A DNA stretch of 64,000 bases from positions 124,001-188,000 of the forward strand of contig JAPLYO010000024.1 in NCBI GenBank assembly GCA_026395555.1, read 5' to 3'. The notes beneath the pieces were generated by a model. The model was not told the origin of the DNA, did no database searches, and saw only the letters and a list, made by a program, of their open reading frames with translations. A program made the translations under genes and the position numbers. This document shows, piece after piece, positions 28,278 to 36,183 of the stretch. The stretch's first letter is position 1, and each line of letters begins with the position of its first letter. This DNA comes from Candidatus Peregrinibacteria bacterium. Its GTDB lineage: Bacteria > Patescibacteriota > Gracilibacteria > UBA1369 > UBA12463.

Positions 28278-29879
28278 ATGCATCAAATACCCATAAATCA
28301 TACCCTGAAGGAGCTGGTCAGACAAGCGCTCGCGCTGCCTGTGAAGGATCAGACCGCCCTGCAACAACTCAAGAATACGTATTCTGCGAAGCATAAAGTC
28401 TCTACGCCTACGAATATGGAGCTCATTGAGGCATATAGGCACATGGCTCAACAGAAGGAAGTTACTGAGGATCGTGACTTCATGAAATTTTTGAGAAAGA
28501 GGGGAGTTCGATCGATGTCGGGAATTGTTTCTATCACGGTTATCACGAAAGCCTTCCCATGCCCTGGAAAGTGCATTTTCTGCCCGACGGAGCCTGGAAT
28601 GCCAAAGAGTTATCTCTCGAACGAGCCGGCGATTATGAGGGCTATTCTGAATGATTTTGGAGCATATCGACAAACGGTGAATCGTATTGATAGTTTAAAA
28701 CGTACGGGTCACGAAACGGACAAGGTAGAAATCATTGTTTCCGGTGGAACATTTTCTTTTTATCCGCATGCCTATCAGACGGCTTTTACGAGACAGATTT
28801 TTAATGCATTAAATTATCCGTTGAAACCTGCACGAAGTTTGCTGGAGGCACAGCAGTTAAATGAAAAAGCAGAAAATAGATGTGTCGGTTTGTCTTTTGA
28901 GACGAGGCCGGATCATATTACAGAATTGGAAGTGAAGCGCCTCGCTACGCTCGGCGCCACTAAAATCGAGATCGGTATTCAGTGTCTGGACGACGAGATC
29001 TACGCCCTCAACCAACGAGGCCACACGATCGCCGATGTGGCCAGATGTATGCAGCTCCTGAAAGATGGCTGTTTCAAAGTCAACGCCCACATGATGCCAA
29101 ATCTCTATGGCTCCACTCCCGAACGTGACTTCGAAATGACGAAGGAGTTATTCGATAATCCTGCCTTCCGACCGGACTGGATGAAGATCTATCCGACGAT
29201 GGTAGTACCGTGGTCTGTTTTGGAAAAAATGCATAAACGTGGCGAGTTCAAGGCATATTCTGATGAGGTGCTTGTCGATCTCATGTGCAAAATCAAGCCG
29301 CTCATCCCTGAATACGTTCGCGTTACGAGACTTTATCGCGATATTCCCGCACCGACGATTGTTGATGGCTCCAAAATTTCTAATTTACGGCAGGTGGTTC
29401 AGGAAGAAATGAAACGCCGTGGACTCCCATCGTGTCGATGCATCCGTTGCCGAGAGGTTCGTGATACCGTGGTCGACCCGAAGGACCTGCGCATGCGCGT
29501 AACTGAGTACGACGCCTCAAATGGTAGGGAGTATTTCATTCAGTGGGAAGATCCCGTTTCTGACAAGATTTGCGCGTTCATCAGACTCAGGTTTCCTTCG
29601 CAGTATTTTACCGGTAAAAAACATTTTATCAAGGAGCTCCAAGATTGTGCCCTTATCCGCGAGCTCCACGTCTATGGCATGCAGATCCCGCTCAACGATA
29701 GGGAAGAAGGTTCTCAACAGCATTTTGGCCTCGGAAAGACGCTTCTTCTGAAGGCTGAGGAGATATCCCGGGCCGCCGGATTCAAGAAAATGGCTATTAT
29801 CAGCGGTGTCGGAGTTCGTGAATACTACCGCAAAACCGGTTACCAGCTTGATGGAACATATATGGTGAAGGGGATTTAG
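28278..29879 (+). CDS. elp3: Elp3-type tRNA uridine(34) cm5 radical SAM / GNAT enzyme
   Basis: The 533-residue protein has a radical SAM cluster motif FPCPGKCIFCP (C95, C99, C102), SGGTFSFYP, FETRPDHI and IEIGIQCLDD, followed by HMMPNLYGSTPERD, a cysteine pair CRCIRCRE and a C-terminal GNAT acetyltransferase domain (HFGLGKTLLLKAEE; YYRKTGYQLDGTYMVK). Elp3 uses acetyl-CoA and SAM to put a carboxymethyl group on U34. The second half is rich in C-ending codons. Start taken at 28278 from the promoter. Confidence 0.93.
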   Translation: MHQIPINHTLKELVRQALALPVKDQTALQQLKNTYSAKHKVSTPTNMELIEAYRHMAQQKEVTEDRDFMKFLRKRGVRSMSGIVSITVITKAFPCPGKCIFCPTEPGMPKSYLSNEPAIMRAILNDFGAYRQTVNRIDSLKRTGHETDKVEIIVSGGTFSFYPHAYQTAFTRQIFNALNYPLKPARSLLEAQQLNEKAENRCVGLSFETRPDHITELEVKRLATLGATKIEIGIQCLDDEIYALNQRGHTIADVARCMQLLKDGCFKVNAHMMPNLYGSTPERDFEMTKELFDNPAFRPDWMKIYPTMVVPWSVLEKMHKRGEFKAYSDEVLVDLMCKIKPLIPEYVRVTRLYRDIPAPTIVDGSKISNLRQVVQEEMKRRGLPSCRCIRCREVRDTVVDPKDLRMRVTEYDASNGREYFIQWEDPVSDKICAFIRLRFPSQYFTGKKHFIKELQDCALIRELHVYGMQIPLNDREEGSQQHFGLGKTLLLKAEEISRAAGFKKMAIISGVGVREYYRKTGYQLDGTYMVKGI

Positions 29880-29912
29880 CTTTGTTTCGTTCTAGCCCTG
29901 AAGCTGATTTTA

Positions 29913-29921
29913 TGATATACT
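29913..29921 (+). promoter_or_regulatory. Extended -10 element for the caspase-like gene
   Basis: TGATATACT, with no convincing -35. Transcript start near 29928 would exclude the TTG at 29882 and support the ATG at 29957. Confidence 0.5.
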
Positions 29922-29956
29922 TATCTGAATATCGCCATTTCGATATACATATAAAT

Positions 29957-32380
29957 ATGCCAGGAATATCCCATAGTCCCAACTCAGACAGACCATCCTT
30001 TGATCCCGAAGGATTGCAGCAATCACCGCACCTTACGGCCGAACAGTTACATGTGCAAGATAGATTAGAGGCAGTTGATTATTATAAATCAATGATGCGG
30101 CGAATTCATGAAATGAAGCAAAAATTCGCAGAAGGAAAGGAAATAGATGGAAAATCGATTTTACGTGAAATGTATGCGCATTTTCCTGATTATCATCCGA
30201 ATGATGATGAACCACTGTCTACATCTATTGAGAAACTTGAAGTTTTATTTTTTAGATTAGCATTACAGAAATTTGATTGCGAAATTCCTTCGTACTCTTT
30301 TCATCTGTGTGCTGTGCAAATGCAAAATACATTAAAAATTCTAGAACGAATTACGAAAATGCTTGATTTACGCATATCGCCTTCAAGTATTCGTGGATTT
30401 TTGAATGAAGTACAATCTTTGCTTAATGCTGAGCCAACTTTTGATATGGTTCTTTCCTATTTGCCTGATGCAATAAGACTTGGTCTTTCTCCTGATGAGG
30501 CATTGCAATTCTGGGTTAATAGAGAAGGTGATGAGGATCCTCTTTCTGCTATCCGTCATATGAAATCTGATGGAATTTCTGATCAGTATCTTGATACGTA
30601 TAACGCTCATTATAAGTCCAAAAAATCAAGTTTTAAACGAATATATGCTTTGCTTCCCTTGAAGGAGTTTATGTTTGATGAAGTGGCTACTATTTCTGAT
30701 TTTGATGCACCCGTCGAAGATTTATCGGACTATTTTCTTTATGTATATTCCGCAACCCATGCCTCTCCATTGTCCTTAATTGCTTTATACAAGCTTGAAA
30801 GGGACCCAGCTAAGGCTGTCGAAATTTCCGAAAATGGACATCTTTTTTCGGATAAGCGTTTTGAAAATACTATATTTCCTATAATTCTGGCTCATGGACT
30901 TTCCGCAATACCTGAGGCTACACAAAAAAATACAATGTATTTTATCAATCAGATTGCTCCAGTGATAAAGTCTGATTCTCATGTTGATTCTTACGATGCT
31001 ACTAAAATCGCTATTTTACTTTGGCGATTAGCAGAAGGGGATCTTGGCAATGCTCGTATAATCTATCATGTAACTTTCCAGAGTGATCGTAAGCTTGAAA
31101 GTGAAAATATTTTTACTGGAAATATTGAAGATGCATACCCATTTGTGGTGGCCCTACAGGGTCGGAATATTCCCTTTGCTAAAATTATTGATCTTTGGTC
31201 ATATTCTCATGGTCCATATGAAGCTCTTCAGGTAGATGCATTCGTTTCATGGATTGAACCACAGCGTAAACATTTCAAAATAGCTTCTCCTAAAGAGCCA
31301 AAAGGACAAGATCAATATGATGCGATGAAGGCTTTTTCAAGCCTTCCTCCTGAGGCAAAGGATTTTGTACCCTATCTTCTTGATAATCACTATTATGTTC
31401 CATATAGAAATCTTGCTCTCTATTTTCAAGATCCATCTATGCTTCTTTGTGTTCAGATTTATAAAACACTTGGGACGAAAAATGTTGCTGATGCCCTACG
31501 TTTAGGAAGAAGCCTCTACTACCAAAATGTTAAATTTGTTCCAAGTAAGGACTTACTCCTTCTTAAACTAAAAGAATTTGAAGCACATCAGCTTTCCTCG
31601 GATCAGATCGTGCTCTTTGAAGGAAGAAATCTTGTTTTTCTGGCCAATTCTGAGACGAGTGGACCTTTTTCGAAGTCTAGATTCAATGGTTTGGAGCTTC
31701 AAGAAAATTTAAAAAAAAGTGTGGGCGAAAAGGGGACTTCATCTTTGCATGCACCAAAATCCGAGAATCCTGACACTGTGGAACTTAATAGTATTAAGAA
31801 GTCTGTTCTTGAGGAAATTACCTCTACTCCGCCACCTATGACGTTCTTTTTTAATGGTCATGGGCAGAAAGATTCAATATATATGAATAACGGAAAAATT
31901 CCTGGTACTGATTATGCAAAGGCAAAATTACGTTCCTATTTTGATACTTTTACTGATTACATTTCAGTTGATGATTTTGCCAAGGCCGTGGCTAAACGCA
32001 AACAAAAATTTCCAGATAATTCCCAAGCCCTTTCTCGTGATATCTATATATTTGATGGTTGTTATCAGCATGAATTTATTAGAAAATTTTATGAGCTTAT
32101 AGCGCAGCAAGATGGTATTGCCCCCATTACCATTGCACCAGCAGAATTTGGTCAATACAGCTTTTCTGATCCACGAAGCTTCGTTCCCTTGATAGGGAAG
32201 TTATTTGATGAAGATCCAAACGATATTATTTTCCGTCTTGGAACATTAGGCACAAAAATAGGAGATATTCGTAAGAATGTTGATAAGTATTCATTATCCA
32301 GGTATGTAGTTTATGTCCCGAATGCAGCTGGACAGCCACAGCAGGTGGTAATGAATGGGATAGGAGGGGATGATTCGTAA
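29957..32380 (+). CDS. Large AT-rich protein with C-terminal caspase-like (clan CD-type) motifs
   Basis: The 807-residue protein (start at MPGISHSPNSD) has no signal peptide. Residues 1-600 are mostly helical and unrecognised. Near the C-terminus FFFNGHGQ (H635) is followed 67 residues later by IYIFDGCYQHEF (C702), each at the end of a hydrophobic strand, as the His-Gly and D-x-C of caspase, CHAT and gingipain-type peptidases. The gene is clearly AT-richer than elp3 upstream and is followed by 400 bp of AT-rich noncoding DNA, suggesting transfer. A peptidase activity is inferred; it could also be an inactive relative. Confidence 0.55.
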   Translation: MPGISHSPNSDRPSFDPEGLQQSPHLTAEQLHVQDRLEAVDYYKSMMRRIHEMKQKFAEGKEIDGKSILREMYAHFPDYHPNDDEPLSTSIEKLEVLFFRLALQKFDCEIPSYSFHLCAVQMQNTLKILERITKMLDLRISPSSIRGFLNEVQSLLNAEPTFDMVLSYLPDAIRLGLSPDEALQFWVNREGDEDPLSAIRHMKSDGISDQYLDTYNAHYKSKKSSFKRIYALLPLKEFMFDEVATISDFDAPVEDLSDYFLYVYSATHASPLSLIALYKLERDPAKAVEISENGHLFSDKRFENTIFPIILAHGLSAIPEATQKNTMYFINQIAPVIKSDSHVDSYDATKIAILLWRLAEGDLGNARIIYHVTFQSDRKLESENIFTGNIEDAYPFVVALQGRNIPFAKIIDLWSYSHGPYEALQVDAFVSWIEPQRKHFKIASPKEPKGQDQYDAMKAFSSLPPEAKDFVPYLLDNHYYVPYRNLALYFQDPSMLLCVQIYKTLGTKNVADALRLGRSLYYQNVKFVPSKDLLLLKLKEFEAHQLSSDQIVLFEGRNLVFLANSETSGPFSKSRFNGLELQENLKKSVGEKGTSSLHAPKSENPDTVELNSIKKSVLEEITSTPPPMTFFFNGHGQKDSIYMNNGKIPGTDYAKAKLRSYFDTFTDYISVDDFAKAVAKRKQKFPDNSQALSRDIYIFDGCYQHEFIRKFYELIAQQDGIAPITIAPAEFGQYSFSDPRSFVPLIGKLFDEDPNDIIFRLGTLGTKIGDIRKNVDKYSLSRYVVYVPNAAGQPQQVVMNGIGGDDS

Positions 32381-32786
32381 TTAAATATTATAGCGCTAAC
32401 ACGTTGTTTTATCCTTCCAAAGCTACCAGCTTTGATTCAGCTTTGCAGCTTTAGAGGTATTACTTTGTACAATGTATCTTGTGCAAAGTATTGTGCTCTG
32501 GGTAGTCGAGTGCTTGCTAAGTTGGTGATTGATGGTTTTGAGTTTCTGTTCTCGGACTTTCCTACCATGTTTCATATGGCTTTATTTTGGTGTGTATTTT
32601 ATATATATAATTAATATATTTTTTATATGTATTTTATATACATTTTATATCACTCAATTTTCTTCAAACCACTTCCCTCCCCTCTCCATAGGCTATAAAT
32701 GGCTTCTAGACTGCAAAAATGGCAAAACTGCCCCTAGGACGCGTTGGAATCGTAGAGATGGGTTCTGAGTCGTTTCGTAGGAAAAA
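32381..32786. other. AT-rich intergenic region without a supportable gene
   Basis: About 400 bp between the caspase-like gene and a convergent lipoprotein gene. It contains a short perfect stem, CAAAGCT/AGCTTTG with a 3-base loop (32418-32434), and low-complexity TTTTATAT runs at about 32596-32652. I see no tRNA, no clear promoter and no frame longer than a few dozen codons with gene-like composition. It may be decayed gene remnant. Confidence 0.6.
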
Positions 32787-33221
32787 TTACTTCTTGCTTG
32801 GGGTGGAATCTAGATAATTTCCGAGTTTTTGAAGGCGTAGCCGAACGCCCGTAATGAGCATGGCGAATCGTGGCACGTTTGCTAATTCCATTTTACTGGA
32901 TGGATTGTTGAATTGATTGGCACAATCTCGCTTGAGTTCAATTTCTTGTTTGTCCGCGAGTCCGAATTTTTCTCTGATTTTTTCTCGTAGCTCAGATGAG
33001 CTTCTTGCGACATCTGGAGTGCCGGCAGCGGCCATGTCTACGTAGGCGCCTGCGGCGCTAAGCATTACATCAATATCTGTTAGATTTTTTTCGTATTCAG
33101 TGGCTAACTGTTCACATGTTTTTTCCTCACCAAAGAGCTGAGTGCCTGAACAGCCAGCGCTGAGTATGGCCAGTGATGTTGCTATTCCGGCTAGTGATGA
33201 GTGAGATGGACTGTTTTTCAT
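32787..33221 (-). CDS. Small lipoprotein, unknown function
   Basis: The 144-residue protein has a signal peptide with lipobox LSAGC (acceptor Cys at 24) after a short N-terminus, then a charged, helical mature part with CEQLATEYEKNLTDIDVM and KREKFGLADK-like stretches and a second Cys (RDCANQF) that could pair with the first mature Cys. No known family is recognised. It starts 4 bp after the upstream 285-residue gene, so they form an operon. Probably surface exposed. Confidence 0.65.
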   Translation of the reverse strand: MKNSPSHSSLAGIATSLAILSAGCSGTQLFGEEKTCEQLATEYEKNLTDIDVMLSAAGAYVDMAAAGTPDVARSSSELREKIREKFGLADKQEIELKRDCANQFNNPSSKMELANVPRFAMLITGVRLRLQKLGNYLDSTPSKK

Positions 33222-33225
33222 GGAT

Positions 33226-34083
33226 TTATTTTTCGGTTTTTATCATTCCGATTAACTGTCTCGTCTCTAATATTTTCCATTGCAAAACTAAAGCTTCTTC
33301 TATTTCTATTCCGGCGATATTGGTAAATGAGAGTCGTTCCGGTTTTGCTTTTGAGGTTATTACATTCAGCAAAAGTACAAAAATCGTGGCGGCAGTTAAT
33401 GTGTATAGATCGTTATCAACACCTTGTATTTTTATAGTACCTGCCATTAGTAGCCCCTGTGCTAATTGCCAAAAGGTGTCGTGTATTCTCGGAGCGAGTA
33501 AGTGCTTGGTGCCTTGTTTTTGTATGTGACGTATTACGAGTATATTTAGTTGATTTGCCCATTCTTCAGTAGAGCGTATTCCGTTTTCTCCCTTTTCATT
33601 CATTATTCTATAAAATGCCTGCTCATCTATTCTTATTGCTGATATTATCTCTGATAGATCTTTTCTTTCACCATCCCATATTGTCCTTAGTAAATAATCG
33701 AATGCATTTCTGGCTCCGCTCTTTGATCTTTCTCTTTCCTCTCGCCAAGCTTTCATTTCATTTGCAATGTCTCGCATTGTATCTGCAAAATGACCATCTT
33801 CGTAGAGACTGGTTATTAAATCTCCATCCTCTCCGTCTTCATCTACTCCTAGGCTCCGTATAAGTATTTCTGCTGGCAATGTCTTTCTTACCTTGTCTAT
33901 TTGTCCGTGCGTTCCAATTCGTAATTTTCTAATTCCAGATATAGCACATAATTCTTCTATTCTTTTGATATCAACTCCGATTTTGTGACTTTCTACTCCT
34001 GCTGGAAAATTTATGTCGAAATTGACAACTTTAGATTTCGATTCTTTAATCGGAGTTAGATTCGTATCTGGGCTTGTAGGCAT
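33226..34083 (-). CDS. Unknown protein, operon partner of the lipoprotein
   Basis: The 285-residue protein is mainly soluble and charged (MKAWREERERSKSGARNAF; GENGIRSTEEWANQL), with one hydrophobic stretch at about 230-250 (TLTAATIFVLLLNVI). No catalytic motif or family is recognised. The gene is AT-rich, like the lipoprotein gene after it. A near-consensus promoter drives the pair. Confidence 0.55.
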   Translation of the reverse strand: MPTSPDTNLTPIKESKSKVVNFDINFPAGVESHKIGVDIKRIEELCAISGIRKLRIGTHGQIDKVRKTLPAEILIRSLGVDEDGEDGDLITSLYEDGHFADTMRDIANEMKAWREERERSKSGARNAFDYLLRTIWDGERKDLSEIISAIRIDEQAFYRIMNEKGENGIRSTEEWANQLNILVIRHIQKQGTKHLLAPRIHDTFWQLAQGLLMAGTIKIQGVDNDLYTLTAATIFVLLLNVITSKAKPERLSFTNIAGIEIEEALVLQWKILETRQLIGMIKTEK

Positions 34084-34106
34084 TATGATGAAACTATAGA
34101 GGTTTT

Positions 34107-34134
34107 ATTATACTTTTTATTTTATTTTTGTCAA
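34107..34134 (-). promoter_or_regulatory. Consensus promoter for the 34083 gene
   Basis: TTGACA (34134-34129), 16-bp spacer, TATAAT (34112-34107): both hexamers match the sigma70 consensus exactly. Transcription should start near 34100, 17 bases before the ATG. Confidence 0.8.
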
Positions 34135-34140
34135 TATCTT

Positions 34141-36183
34141 CTAATCATTCACGTATACTTGTTCCGTTCGTTCGAGCTTAGCTTTGAGGAGGGGAAATTT
34201 GGTCATTTCTGGATCGTTTTCTATGAGTTTAATGGCGTATTGGCGGGCTTTGGAGATGGTGTGGGCGTCGGTGAGGGAGGCCATTTTGAGGTCTGGAATG
34301 CCGGATTGGCGTACGCCGTAAAGTTCACCGGGGCCACGCATCTTGAGGTCGATCTCGGCGAGGGCGAAGCCGCTGTGATATTTCACCATGGCGGACAGAC
34401 GCTTGGTGGAGGTCTGGGATTCCTTATTCGTGAAGAGGAAGCAGTAGGACTGGTGATCGCTGCGTCCGACTCGTCCGCGGAACTGATGGAGCTGCGAGAG
34501 GCCGAATCGCTCTGCTCCCTCGATAATCATGATGGTGGCGTTGGGCACATCGATACCAACTTCGATGACAGAAGTGGAAACGAGTAAATGAATTTCGTTA
34601 TTTGAAAATCTTCCCATGATATCGTCTTTTTCTTCCTGTTTCATTTTGCCATGGAGAAACTCTACTTTTAGCTCGGGGAAGATGTGTTGGCTGAGTTCTT
34701 CATACGCCTCTGCAACTGAACGCGCCTCTACCGTGTCTGATTCATCTATGAGGGGACATACTACGAAAACCTGACGACCTTTTTGGACCTGTTCGCGAAT
34801 CCAGTTGTAGGCGTCTTTACGTTTCTTTTCGGGGACGATGTGTGTCTCGATCGGTTTGCGGCCTGGCGGAAGTTCGTCGATGACGGAGAGGTCTTGATCG
34901 CCGTAGAGGGTCATGGCGAGAGTGCGAGGAATGGGCGTTGCGGAGAGCGAGAGGAGGTGCGGGCCACCGTGGGATTTGAGCGTATCGCGCTGCTTCACTC
35001 CAAATCGATGTTGTTCGTCGATGATGGCGAGGCCGAGCTTCTTGAATCCGACGGCCTCCTGGATGAGGGAGTGTGTTCCGACTACCAGATCACATGTACC
35101 TGTCTTGAGTTGAAGAATGATTTCTTCCTTTTGTTTCGCTGGCGTACTTCCCAATACCTGCTGGATATTGATGCCGTATTGTACAAAAAATTTATACAAT
35201 GTTTTATAGTGTTGTTTGGTGAGGATTTCCGTGGGTGCCATGATAGCTACTTGGTGTCCGTTTTTGATCATGCTCATTGCAGCGAGTCCAGCGATAACGG
35301 TCTTCCCTGAGCCAACATCACCTTGTATTAGTCGCGACATGGGAATGTCTTTTTCTAGGTCGTCTATGATCTCGTTGAGCACTTTTGCTTGTGCCTCGGT
35401 GAGCTGAAATGGGAGATTGCCGAGCATCTCCTGGAGGTATTCTTTATTAATCCCAATCTTCTTGATCTTGCTCGCATCTGAGTGCTGCCAGAGCCACTTT
35501 TTGTGAATGGCCTTGAGCTGAAGGAGGAAGAGCTCGTCGAAGGCCAGTCGTTTCTTGGCCGCCTCCAAATCCTCTACCGTGTGTGGATAGTGCGCGAACT
35601 CAATCGCCTCTTTCAGTGGAATCAATTTTTCTTTTTCCCGAATAGGTGCTGGAAGGTAGTCCTCTATTTGTTTGAGAAACTCATTTAAAACTGGTCTCAT
35701 TTTTTCTCGAATCCATTTAGAATTTAGCCCTTCTGTCTCATGATAAATCGGCACGATTCGTCCCGTGTGGAGCTGCTCTTCTCTCTTGTGCTCAACCGTC
35801 GGGCTCGCAATTCCCAGTTTACGCATATTTAATTTTGGCTTACCGCTCACGAAAACATGCATGCCAGACTTGAACTGATGCATAATGAACTTCTGATTGA
35901 ACCAGACGAGCTCGATCCCGCCCGTGTCATCGGTAAGGAGCGCCTTCGTAAACTGACGGCCACCAGGAAGCTTCTTGCTGAAAAAATTAGAGAGTACTCC
36001 GCTGAAGGTCTGCATCTCCCCTTCTTTGGCATCGGAGATCGGCGTGATACCAGATGAGTCTGTATAGGCACGAGGAAAATAGTAGATGAAGTCCTCTACC
36101 GTCTTTACCCCGACACTTTGAAGGAGCTCCAAGTGTTTGGGGTTTGTACCGAGAACGGTCTTAAGAAGGGCGGTCAGTGACAT
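34141..36183 (-). CDS. recG: ATP-dependent DNA helicase RecG
   Basis: The 680-residue protein has an N-terminal wedge/OB region, Walker A in IQGDVGSGKTVIAGL, LAIIDEQHRFGVKQR (DEQH, as in RecG), SATPIPRTLAMTLYGD, VSTSVIEVGIDVPNAT and QFRGRVGRSDHQSYC (motif VI), then RMSGPGEL-type KMRGPGELYG. RecG reverses stalled forks and branch-migrates Holliday junctions. The length is normal. A possible -10 (TACACT) 7 bases before the ATG suggests leaderless expression. The cytosine-rich coding strand is notable in parts. Confidence 0.97.
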   Translation of the reverse strand: MSLTALLKTVLGTNPKHLELLQSVGVKTVEDFIYYFPRAYTDSSGITPISDAKEGEMQTFSGVLSNFFSKKLPGGRQFTKALLTDDTGGIELVWFNQKFIMHQFKSGMHVFVSGKPKLNMRKLGIASPTVEHKREEQLHTGRIVPIYHETEGLNSKWIREKMRPVLNEFLKQIEDYLPAPIREKEKLIPLKEAIEFAHYPHTVEDLEAAKKRLAFDELFLLQLKAIHKKWLWQHSDASKIKKIGINKEYLQEMLGNLPFQLTEAQAKVLNEIIDDLEKDIPMSRLIQGDVGSGKTVIAGLAAMSMIKNGHQVAIMAPTEILTKQHYKTLYKFFVQYGINIQQVLGSTPAKQKEEIILQLKTGTCDLVVGTHSLIQEAVGFKKLGLAIIDEQHRFGVKQRDTLKSHGGPHLLSLSATPIPRTLAMTLYGDQDLSVIDELPPGRKPIETHIVPEKKRKDAYNWIREQVQKGRQVFVVCPLIDESDTVEARSVAEAYEELSQHIFPELKVEFLHGKMKQEEKDDIMGRFSNNEIHLLVSTSVIEVGIDVPNATIMIIEGAERFGLSQLHQFRGRVGRSDHQSYCFLFTNKESQTSTKRLSAMVKYHSGFALAEIDLKMRGPGELYGVRQSGIPDLKMASLTDAHTISKARQYAIKLIENDPEMTKFPLLKAKLERTEQVYVND

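What the first reader, a model, noticed from the sequence alone, without database searches (positions are those of the whole stretch)
29957..32380. Large AT-rich protein with a C-terminal caspase-like His/Cys pair
FNGHGQ (H635) and IFDGCYQ (D700, C702) sit at the ends of hydrophobic strands 67 residues apart, the pattern of clan CD peptidases. The 600-residue N-terminal part is unknown. The gene differs in base composition from elp3 upstream and is followed by an empty AT-rich gap. A caspase-like effector with a large sensor part could be a defence or cell-surface regulated-proteolysis system.
Basis: partly seen in the sequence, partly recalled or inferred. Interest (0 to 1): 0.58.

Follow-up and report, generated by a model that had tools for sequence, protein, structure and literature searches.

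The report
Lineage-specific caspase-like protease, variable N-terminus
This gene of a small-genome bacterium encodes a probable caspase-like protein-cutting enzyme fused to a rapidly changing helical region, part of a patchy gene family of that bacterial class which standard databases do not recognise.

Summary
Window 29957-32380 encodes 807 aa with GHG (H635) and DGC (C702). It has no Pfam match even at E 10 but belongs to a real family: 33 of 353 genomes of its class match. In 36 aligned domains only H635 and C702 never vary; D700 is not conserved. An AlphaFold2 model of the C-terminal domain (pTM 0.75) has the caspase/haemoglobinase strand order, His and Cys just after strands 3 and 4. All 50 VIA-align rows have the caspase fold (Z 10.1-12.0). 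The family profile finds GPI transamidase in the PDB at E 4e-5. The N-terminal part is at shuffle-level identity between most homologues. The gene sits in a variable slot after elp3 that holds other genes in close relatives. No membrane segment is apparent; neighbours are mostly housekeeping. Best reading: a cytosolic, accessory, sensor-gated clan CD endopeptidase, predicted to cut after basic residues. Defence is possible but unproven; a cell-surface role is not supported.

The parts
29957..32380 (+). Coding sequence, 807 aa (alternative in-frame starts ATG 29912, TTG 29882)
   Evidence: start codon not settled
29957..31423 (+). N-terminal variable region, residues 1-489, predicted helical, proposed sensor/regulator
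   Evidence: Shuffle-level identity to same-genus homologues; helices at pLDDT mostly under 50; no Pfam match
31424..31615 (+). Conserved helical lead-in to the protease core, residues 490-553 (D492, R518 conserved)
31616..32377 (+). Caspase-like (clan CD fold) domain, residues 554-807
   Evidence: Model pTM 0.75; VIA Z up to 12.0; profile match to GPI transamidase
31859..31861 (+). H635, putative catalytic His of GHG
   Evidence: Invariant in 36 of 36; two residues after strand 3
32060..32062 (+). C702, putative catalytic Cys
   Evidence: Invariant in 36 of 36; two residues after strand 4
31652..31654 (+). E566, after strand 1, possible S1 acid
   Evidence: Glu in 30 of 36; role inferred from the clan CD S1 map
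32144..32146 (+). E730, after strand 5 (SEYGQ motif, AEFGQ here), possible S1 acid
   Evidence: Glu in 31 of 36; aligned with a Glu of GPI transamidase; role inferred

Best explanation
It is a cytosolic, stand-alone cysteine endopeptidase with the clan CD (caspase-like) fold, of a family so far seen only in the class of small-genome bacteria to which the window belongs (members named Peregrinibacteria, Gracilibacteria and Peribacter). The C-terminal domain is predicted to cut peptide bonds with a His635-Cys702 dyad; conserved acids E566 and E730 on loops that line the S1 pocket in other clan CD enzymes predict a preference for Arg or Lys at P1. The long N-terminal region, helical and different in almost every member, is proposed to hold the protease off and release it when it binds a trigger, as in TPR-CHAT proteins and separase. 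The gene is accessory and sits at different sites in close relatives. Shown: family, invariant dyad, predicted fold, modular variation, variable slot. Inferred: proteolysis, P1 preference, gating by the N-terminus. Open: trigger, substrate, and whether the outcome is defence/cell suicide or ordinary regulated proteolysis.
For: H and C the only invariant columns in 36 domains. Model with caspase strand order; all 50 VIA rows have the caspase fold; Foldseek ranks 1-16 are caspases, metacaspases and GPI transamidase, probability 0.77-0.99. Family profile to GPI transamidase E 4.2e-5; hhalign to a 3-sequence C14 profile probability 84, reversed control 0.2. One member reaches Pfam Peptidase_C13 at 0.0025 over the His-Cys stretch, one PADLOC 'caspase' at 3.6e-4. 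Domain conserved while N-terminus is at shuffle level. Slot content differs between close relatives.
Against: No enzymatic evidence. Model confidence is moderate (mean pLDDT 70.2) and no Foldseek match is under E 0.001. The dyad distance could not be measured. The N-terminal model is poor and the window protein itself lacks the recognisable repeats, so gating is an analogy. E566 and E730 are not invariant. No conserved partner or substrate gene.
Confidence: 0.6

Rival explanations
1. A single-gene anti-phage or anti-element suicide system: the variable helical region senses infection and the caspase-like domain then cleaves host proteins and stops growth.
For: Patchy presence, 33 of 353 class genomes; alternative cargo in the same slot, some of it kinase-like; N-terminus replaced while the protease is kept; known defence proteases share the fold, for example SAVED-CHAT.
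Against: Flanks are mostly housekeeping; PADLOC matches among 97 flanking proteins are scattered. No relative found in phage, plasmid or viral collections. No phage data.
Confidence: 0.3
2. A housekeeping-type processing enzyme, protease or transamidase as in legumain and GPI transamidase, whose helical part only docks substrates.
For: Closest sequence and top structural match is the GPI transamidase subunit; housekeeping neighbours.
Against: Absent from most genomes of the class and from two of five genomes of the genus; no partner conserved; VIA rows within 1 Z are ties, so the nearest family is not fixed.
Confidence: 0.2
3. An effector delivered to neighbouring or host cells, with the variable region serving recognition or delivery.
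For: Variable N-terminus; in L064 a protease-only copy lies 10 bp after a gene whose product looks like a surface protein with a leader and a C-terminal hydrophobic segment (sequence printed, read by eye).
Against: No leader or membrane segment in the intact family members; the L064 arrangement is one of 34 neighbourhoods. That such bacteria often live attached to hosts is recalled, not tested.
Confidence: 0.08
4. A catalytically dead caspase-fold scaffold, as in Raptor.
For: Raptor is among the structural matches; activity untested.
Against: His and Cys kept in 36 of 36 while nearly all else drifts, as expected for catalysis.
Confidence: 0.07

Closest known systems
GPI transamidase catalytic subunit and legumain (family C13)
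   Same: Best family-profile match in the PDB (9ub7_C, E 4.2e-5) with GHG, Cys and the following SE motif in register; top VIA rows (Z 12.0 and 11.7)
   Different: Those are eukaryotic membrane-complex or lysosomal enzymes (recalled); here a bacterial protein with a large variable helical N-terminus and no leader; below the Pfam cut-off in every member scanned
Caspases, metacaspases, paracaspases and bacterial orthocaspases (family C14)
   Same: Fold and dyad; hhalign probability 84 to a small C14 profile; metacaspase Z 11.6, MALT1 10.8
   Different: Catalytic domain at the C-terminus behind a large variable region; no PF00656 match in the own genome
TPR-CHAT (Csx29/Craspase), SAVED-CHAT and separase
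   Same: Helical N-terminus followed by a C-terminal caspase-like domain with a His/Cys dyad (PMC9729208 passages); SAVED-CHAT Z 11.0 and profile E 0.027
   Different: No CHAT match in Pfam; no CRISPR partner gene noticed in the flanks; no TPR signature in this protein

Membership tests
[quoted passage not shown]
   Predicted model only: strands 558-563, 595-598, 628-633, 696-700, 724-728, 783-788; H635 and C702 two residues after strands 3 and 4; VIA Z 10.1-12.0
Clan CD (caspase/haemoglobinase fold) | His/Cys dyad conserved, Gly next to the His | tested here: met
   His and Cys 36 of 36; Gly after His 33 of 36
Clan CD (caspase/haemoglobinase fold) | Cysteine-dependent peptidase activity | not testable with these tools
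   Needs the bench
Peptidase_C14 (PF00656) | Profile match over the curated cut-off | tested here: not met
   No match at E 10 for the protein; none in own genome
Peptidase_C13 (PF01650) | Profile match over the curated cut-off | tested here: not met
   No match for the protein; one relative reaches 17.8 bits against 22.8
CHAT (PF12770) | Profile match over the curated cut-off | tested here: not met
   No match in the protein or in the 13 members of A1
CHAT (PF12770) | Fold close to CHAT | tested here: inconclusive
   SAVED-CHAT Z 11.0, tied with other families
Known anti-phage systems (PADLOC) | Match to a system protein or defence neighbours | tested here: inconclusive
   Protein: PDC-S32 at 0.0087 only; one relative 'caspase' at 3.6e-4; neighbours scattered

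The most novel reading that the evidence does not exclude
A caspase-fold family private to one class of small-genome bacteria works as a set of single-gene, swappable immune or death switches: one constant executioner protease fused to ever-replaced helical sensors, carried through a cargo slot behind elp3 that other members of the genus fill with a kinase-like protein.
Probability: 0.2. Interest if true: 0.78.

Novelty: new variant of a known kind. Interest (0 to 1): 0.5.

Why it matters
Caspase-type proteases link bacterial defence, CRISPR-guided proteolysis and eukaryotic cell death. A family that keeps little more than the dyad and the fold while its attached region turns over almost completely would give a defined, testable set of switches in bacteria whose defence and regulated proteolysis are little known. 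It also escapes the profile libraries at their cut-offs, so automatic annotation would probably call it hypothetical.

Tried and rejected
Chance motif: rejected, dyad invariant in 36 of 36. His-Asp-Cys signature: rejected, Asp in 5 of 36. Relatives outside the class: the one match (G377, E 4.7e-4) shows no GHG or Cys in the alignment and has a pilin-like leader, so I discount it. The 379 phylum genomes include class members; how many lie outside the class was not counted. Viral, phage and plasmid origin: no match. Conserved operon partner: none seen; shared neighbour families come in few loci. Repeat search: a first pattern failed; the second found 28-30-aa repeats in 7 of 36 N-termini but not in this protein. 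Families C25, C11 and C80 were not among the VIA rows shown, which does not exclude them. RNA element: no Rfam match at 29800-34200. The viral structure library gave giant-virus caspases and clostripain at E 3e-3 to 5e-2, none under 0.001. Weak family-library hits of single members to unrelated families were taken as noise. Literature: 'Peregrinibacteria'+'caspase' 0 papers; 'candidate phyla radiation'+'caspase' 7 papers, two of them read in passages, neither describing this family in the passages seen; seen as search listings, of which PMC4357240 and PMC9729208 were also read in passages. Rows dropped before counts: the two fragments of L026 and L084 left out of the 36 domains; N-termini under 150 aa left out; 11 of 108 selected neighbours left out of A6 (and code-25 locus L083, very short, very long or edge-cut genes before that).

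Full report
What was checked. The ORF at 29957-32380 encodes 807 aa; upstream in-frame starts at 29912 and 29882 leave the true start open, and the frame begins within a few bases of the elp3 stop, so the two may be translated together (inference). FNGHGQ and IFDGCYQ are at the stated places. The protein has no Pfam match at E 10 or better, no meaningful PDB sequence match by phmmer, and one copy in its own genome.

A real family. Counting the own genome, 12 of 59 relatives match, 18 of 89 in the order, 32 of 353 in the class with the first profile and 33 of 353 with a 36-member profile; some matches are partial. In a sample of 379 genomes of the phylum 6 match, five of them in the class and the sixth judged false. 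A pattern scan of a collection of 84,980 species first found nothing with the window protein and then, with five closer relatives, seven loci, all in organisms named Peregrinibacteria, Gracilibacteria or Peribacter. Three matching genomes of the class carry 7-8 in-frame TGA in the domain (G131, G145, G210), which fits the TGA recoding known for Gracilibacteria (recalled).

The dyad. In 36 domains (two fragments of a broken copy and one false match left out) H635 and C702 never change; next come F576 35, T629, G636 and P723 33, G634 32, R518, P627, R681, D695 and E730 31, E566 30 of 36. A realignment gives the same two invariant columns at 21% mean column identity. D700 is Asp in 5 of 36 (read).

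The fold. The model of residues 425-807 has mean pLDDT 70.2 and pTM 0.75, with the helix-strand order of the caspase/haemoglobinase fold and H635 and C702 two residues after strands 3 and 4, the arrangement that a review gives as common to clan CD (PMC4357240, passages). Foldseek ranks 1-16 are caspases, metacaspases and GPI transamidase, best E 3.2e-3, none under 0.001; unrelated folds begin at rank 17. The 50 VIA rows run from Z 12.0 to 10.1 over 169-207 residues, rmsd 3.5-7.2: GPI transamidase, legumains and plant asparaginyl ligases, metacaspases, Raptor, SAVED-CHAT, MALT1, caspase-6; differences under 1 are ties. Sequence alone agrees: the 36-member profile finds GPI transamidase (9ub7_C) at E 4.2e-5 and SAVED-CHAT at 0.027, with GHG and Cys in register; three endoglucanase H sequences near 0.06 and a sybody at 1.3 look like noise. 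The earlier 13-member profile found nothing in the PDB. hhalign gives probability 84 to a small C14 profile and 29 to a small CHAT profile, against 0.2 for reversed controls.

Specificity, inferred. In clan CD the S1 pocket is shaped by helix 1 or loop 1 and by loops 4 and 5, with an aromatic residue on loop 5. This family has Glu after strand 1 (E566) and Glu-aromatic after strand 5 (E730-F731; mostly EY), which predicts a basic P1. Coordinates could not be measured here.

The N-terminus. Lengths before the domain run from 56 to 660 aa (some are contig-edge cases). Of 528 pairs, 102 share 33% or more in the domain; their N-termini are at or near the level of shuffled sequence apart from a handful, clearest L074/L075 and L020/L022, then L019/L024. 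The window protein and its same-genus relatives L016 and L017 share 45% and 42% in the domain but 24% and 22% in the N-terminus, against 22% and 21% shuffled. Full-length modelling shows helices at low confidence (pTM 0.42). A 28-30-aa repeat occurs in 7 of 36 N-termini, three of them with six to eight copies, in 1 of 360 shuffles and in none of the neighbouring genes; not in the window protein.

Genomic setting. Among the same-genus genomes Elp3 is 87-97% identical, but between elp3 and recG each genome examined has something else: this gene in the window, a kinase-like gene (Pkinase E 8e-5 and 5e-5, both under the curated cut-off) with a small ORF in G002 and G003, a 113-aa ORF in G001. G004 is split between contigs there. 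G002 keeps its own family member on another contig. So the gene is accessory and site-variable. Neighbours of the family are diverse; of 97 flanking proteins scanned, PADLOC matches are scattered, several to general enzyme types, and the Pfam families listed are mostly housekeeping. Profiles of CHAT, C14 and C13 are rare in a sample of 192 phylum genomes: 5, 3 and 2 at E 0.001, none in the own class.

Judgement. The clan CD fold and dyad are well supported by prediction and conservation; membership in C13, C14 or CHAT by profile cut-off is not met. It works most likely like TPR-CHAT or separase, a helical region controlling a C-terminal caspase-like protease (PMC9729208, passages). Defence is a fair guess from patchiness and N-terminal turnover, weakened by the absence of defence neighbours; surface-regulated proteolysis lacks any leader or membrane segment in the intact members.

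Noticed in passing
window 32464-32487; L119, L120, L121, L124, L115, L116, L117: A 24-nt dyad (stem-loop when folded; z -2.8 for the surrounding 111 nt) with one variable position in 8 of 8 genomes of the bacterial family, always between elp3 and recG; one copy in the window, no Rfam match. Function unknown.
   Followed up: partly
window 29880-34140: The elp3-recG interval is a variable cargo slot: caspase-like gene here, kinase-like gene plus small ORF in G002 and G003, small ORFs in G001 and G007.
   Followed up: partly
L026 4796-7504: A relative in G021 has an in-frame TAG between the His and Cys motifs, so it is broken, recoded or a sequencing error.
   Followed up: no
L023 3003-4864 and L050 320-1702: In G026 the protease and another gene share nearly the same first 45 or so residues, suggesting exchange of N-terminal ends (by eye).
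   Followed up: no
L064 4370-8011: A protease-domain-only copy (390 aa) follows by 10 bp a gene for a long surface-type protein with a leader and a C-terminal hydrophobic segment.
   Followed up: no
L075 8120-11920: Two family members in tandem on one strand.
   Followed up: no
window 32787-34083: Two minus-strand genes without a Pfam match over cut-off; the product of 32787-33221 resembles by eye an ORF at the same place in G002 (L119 4639-5055).
   Followed up: no
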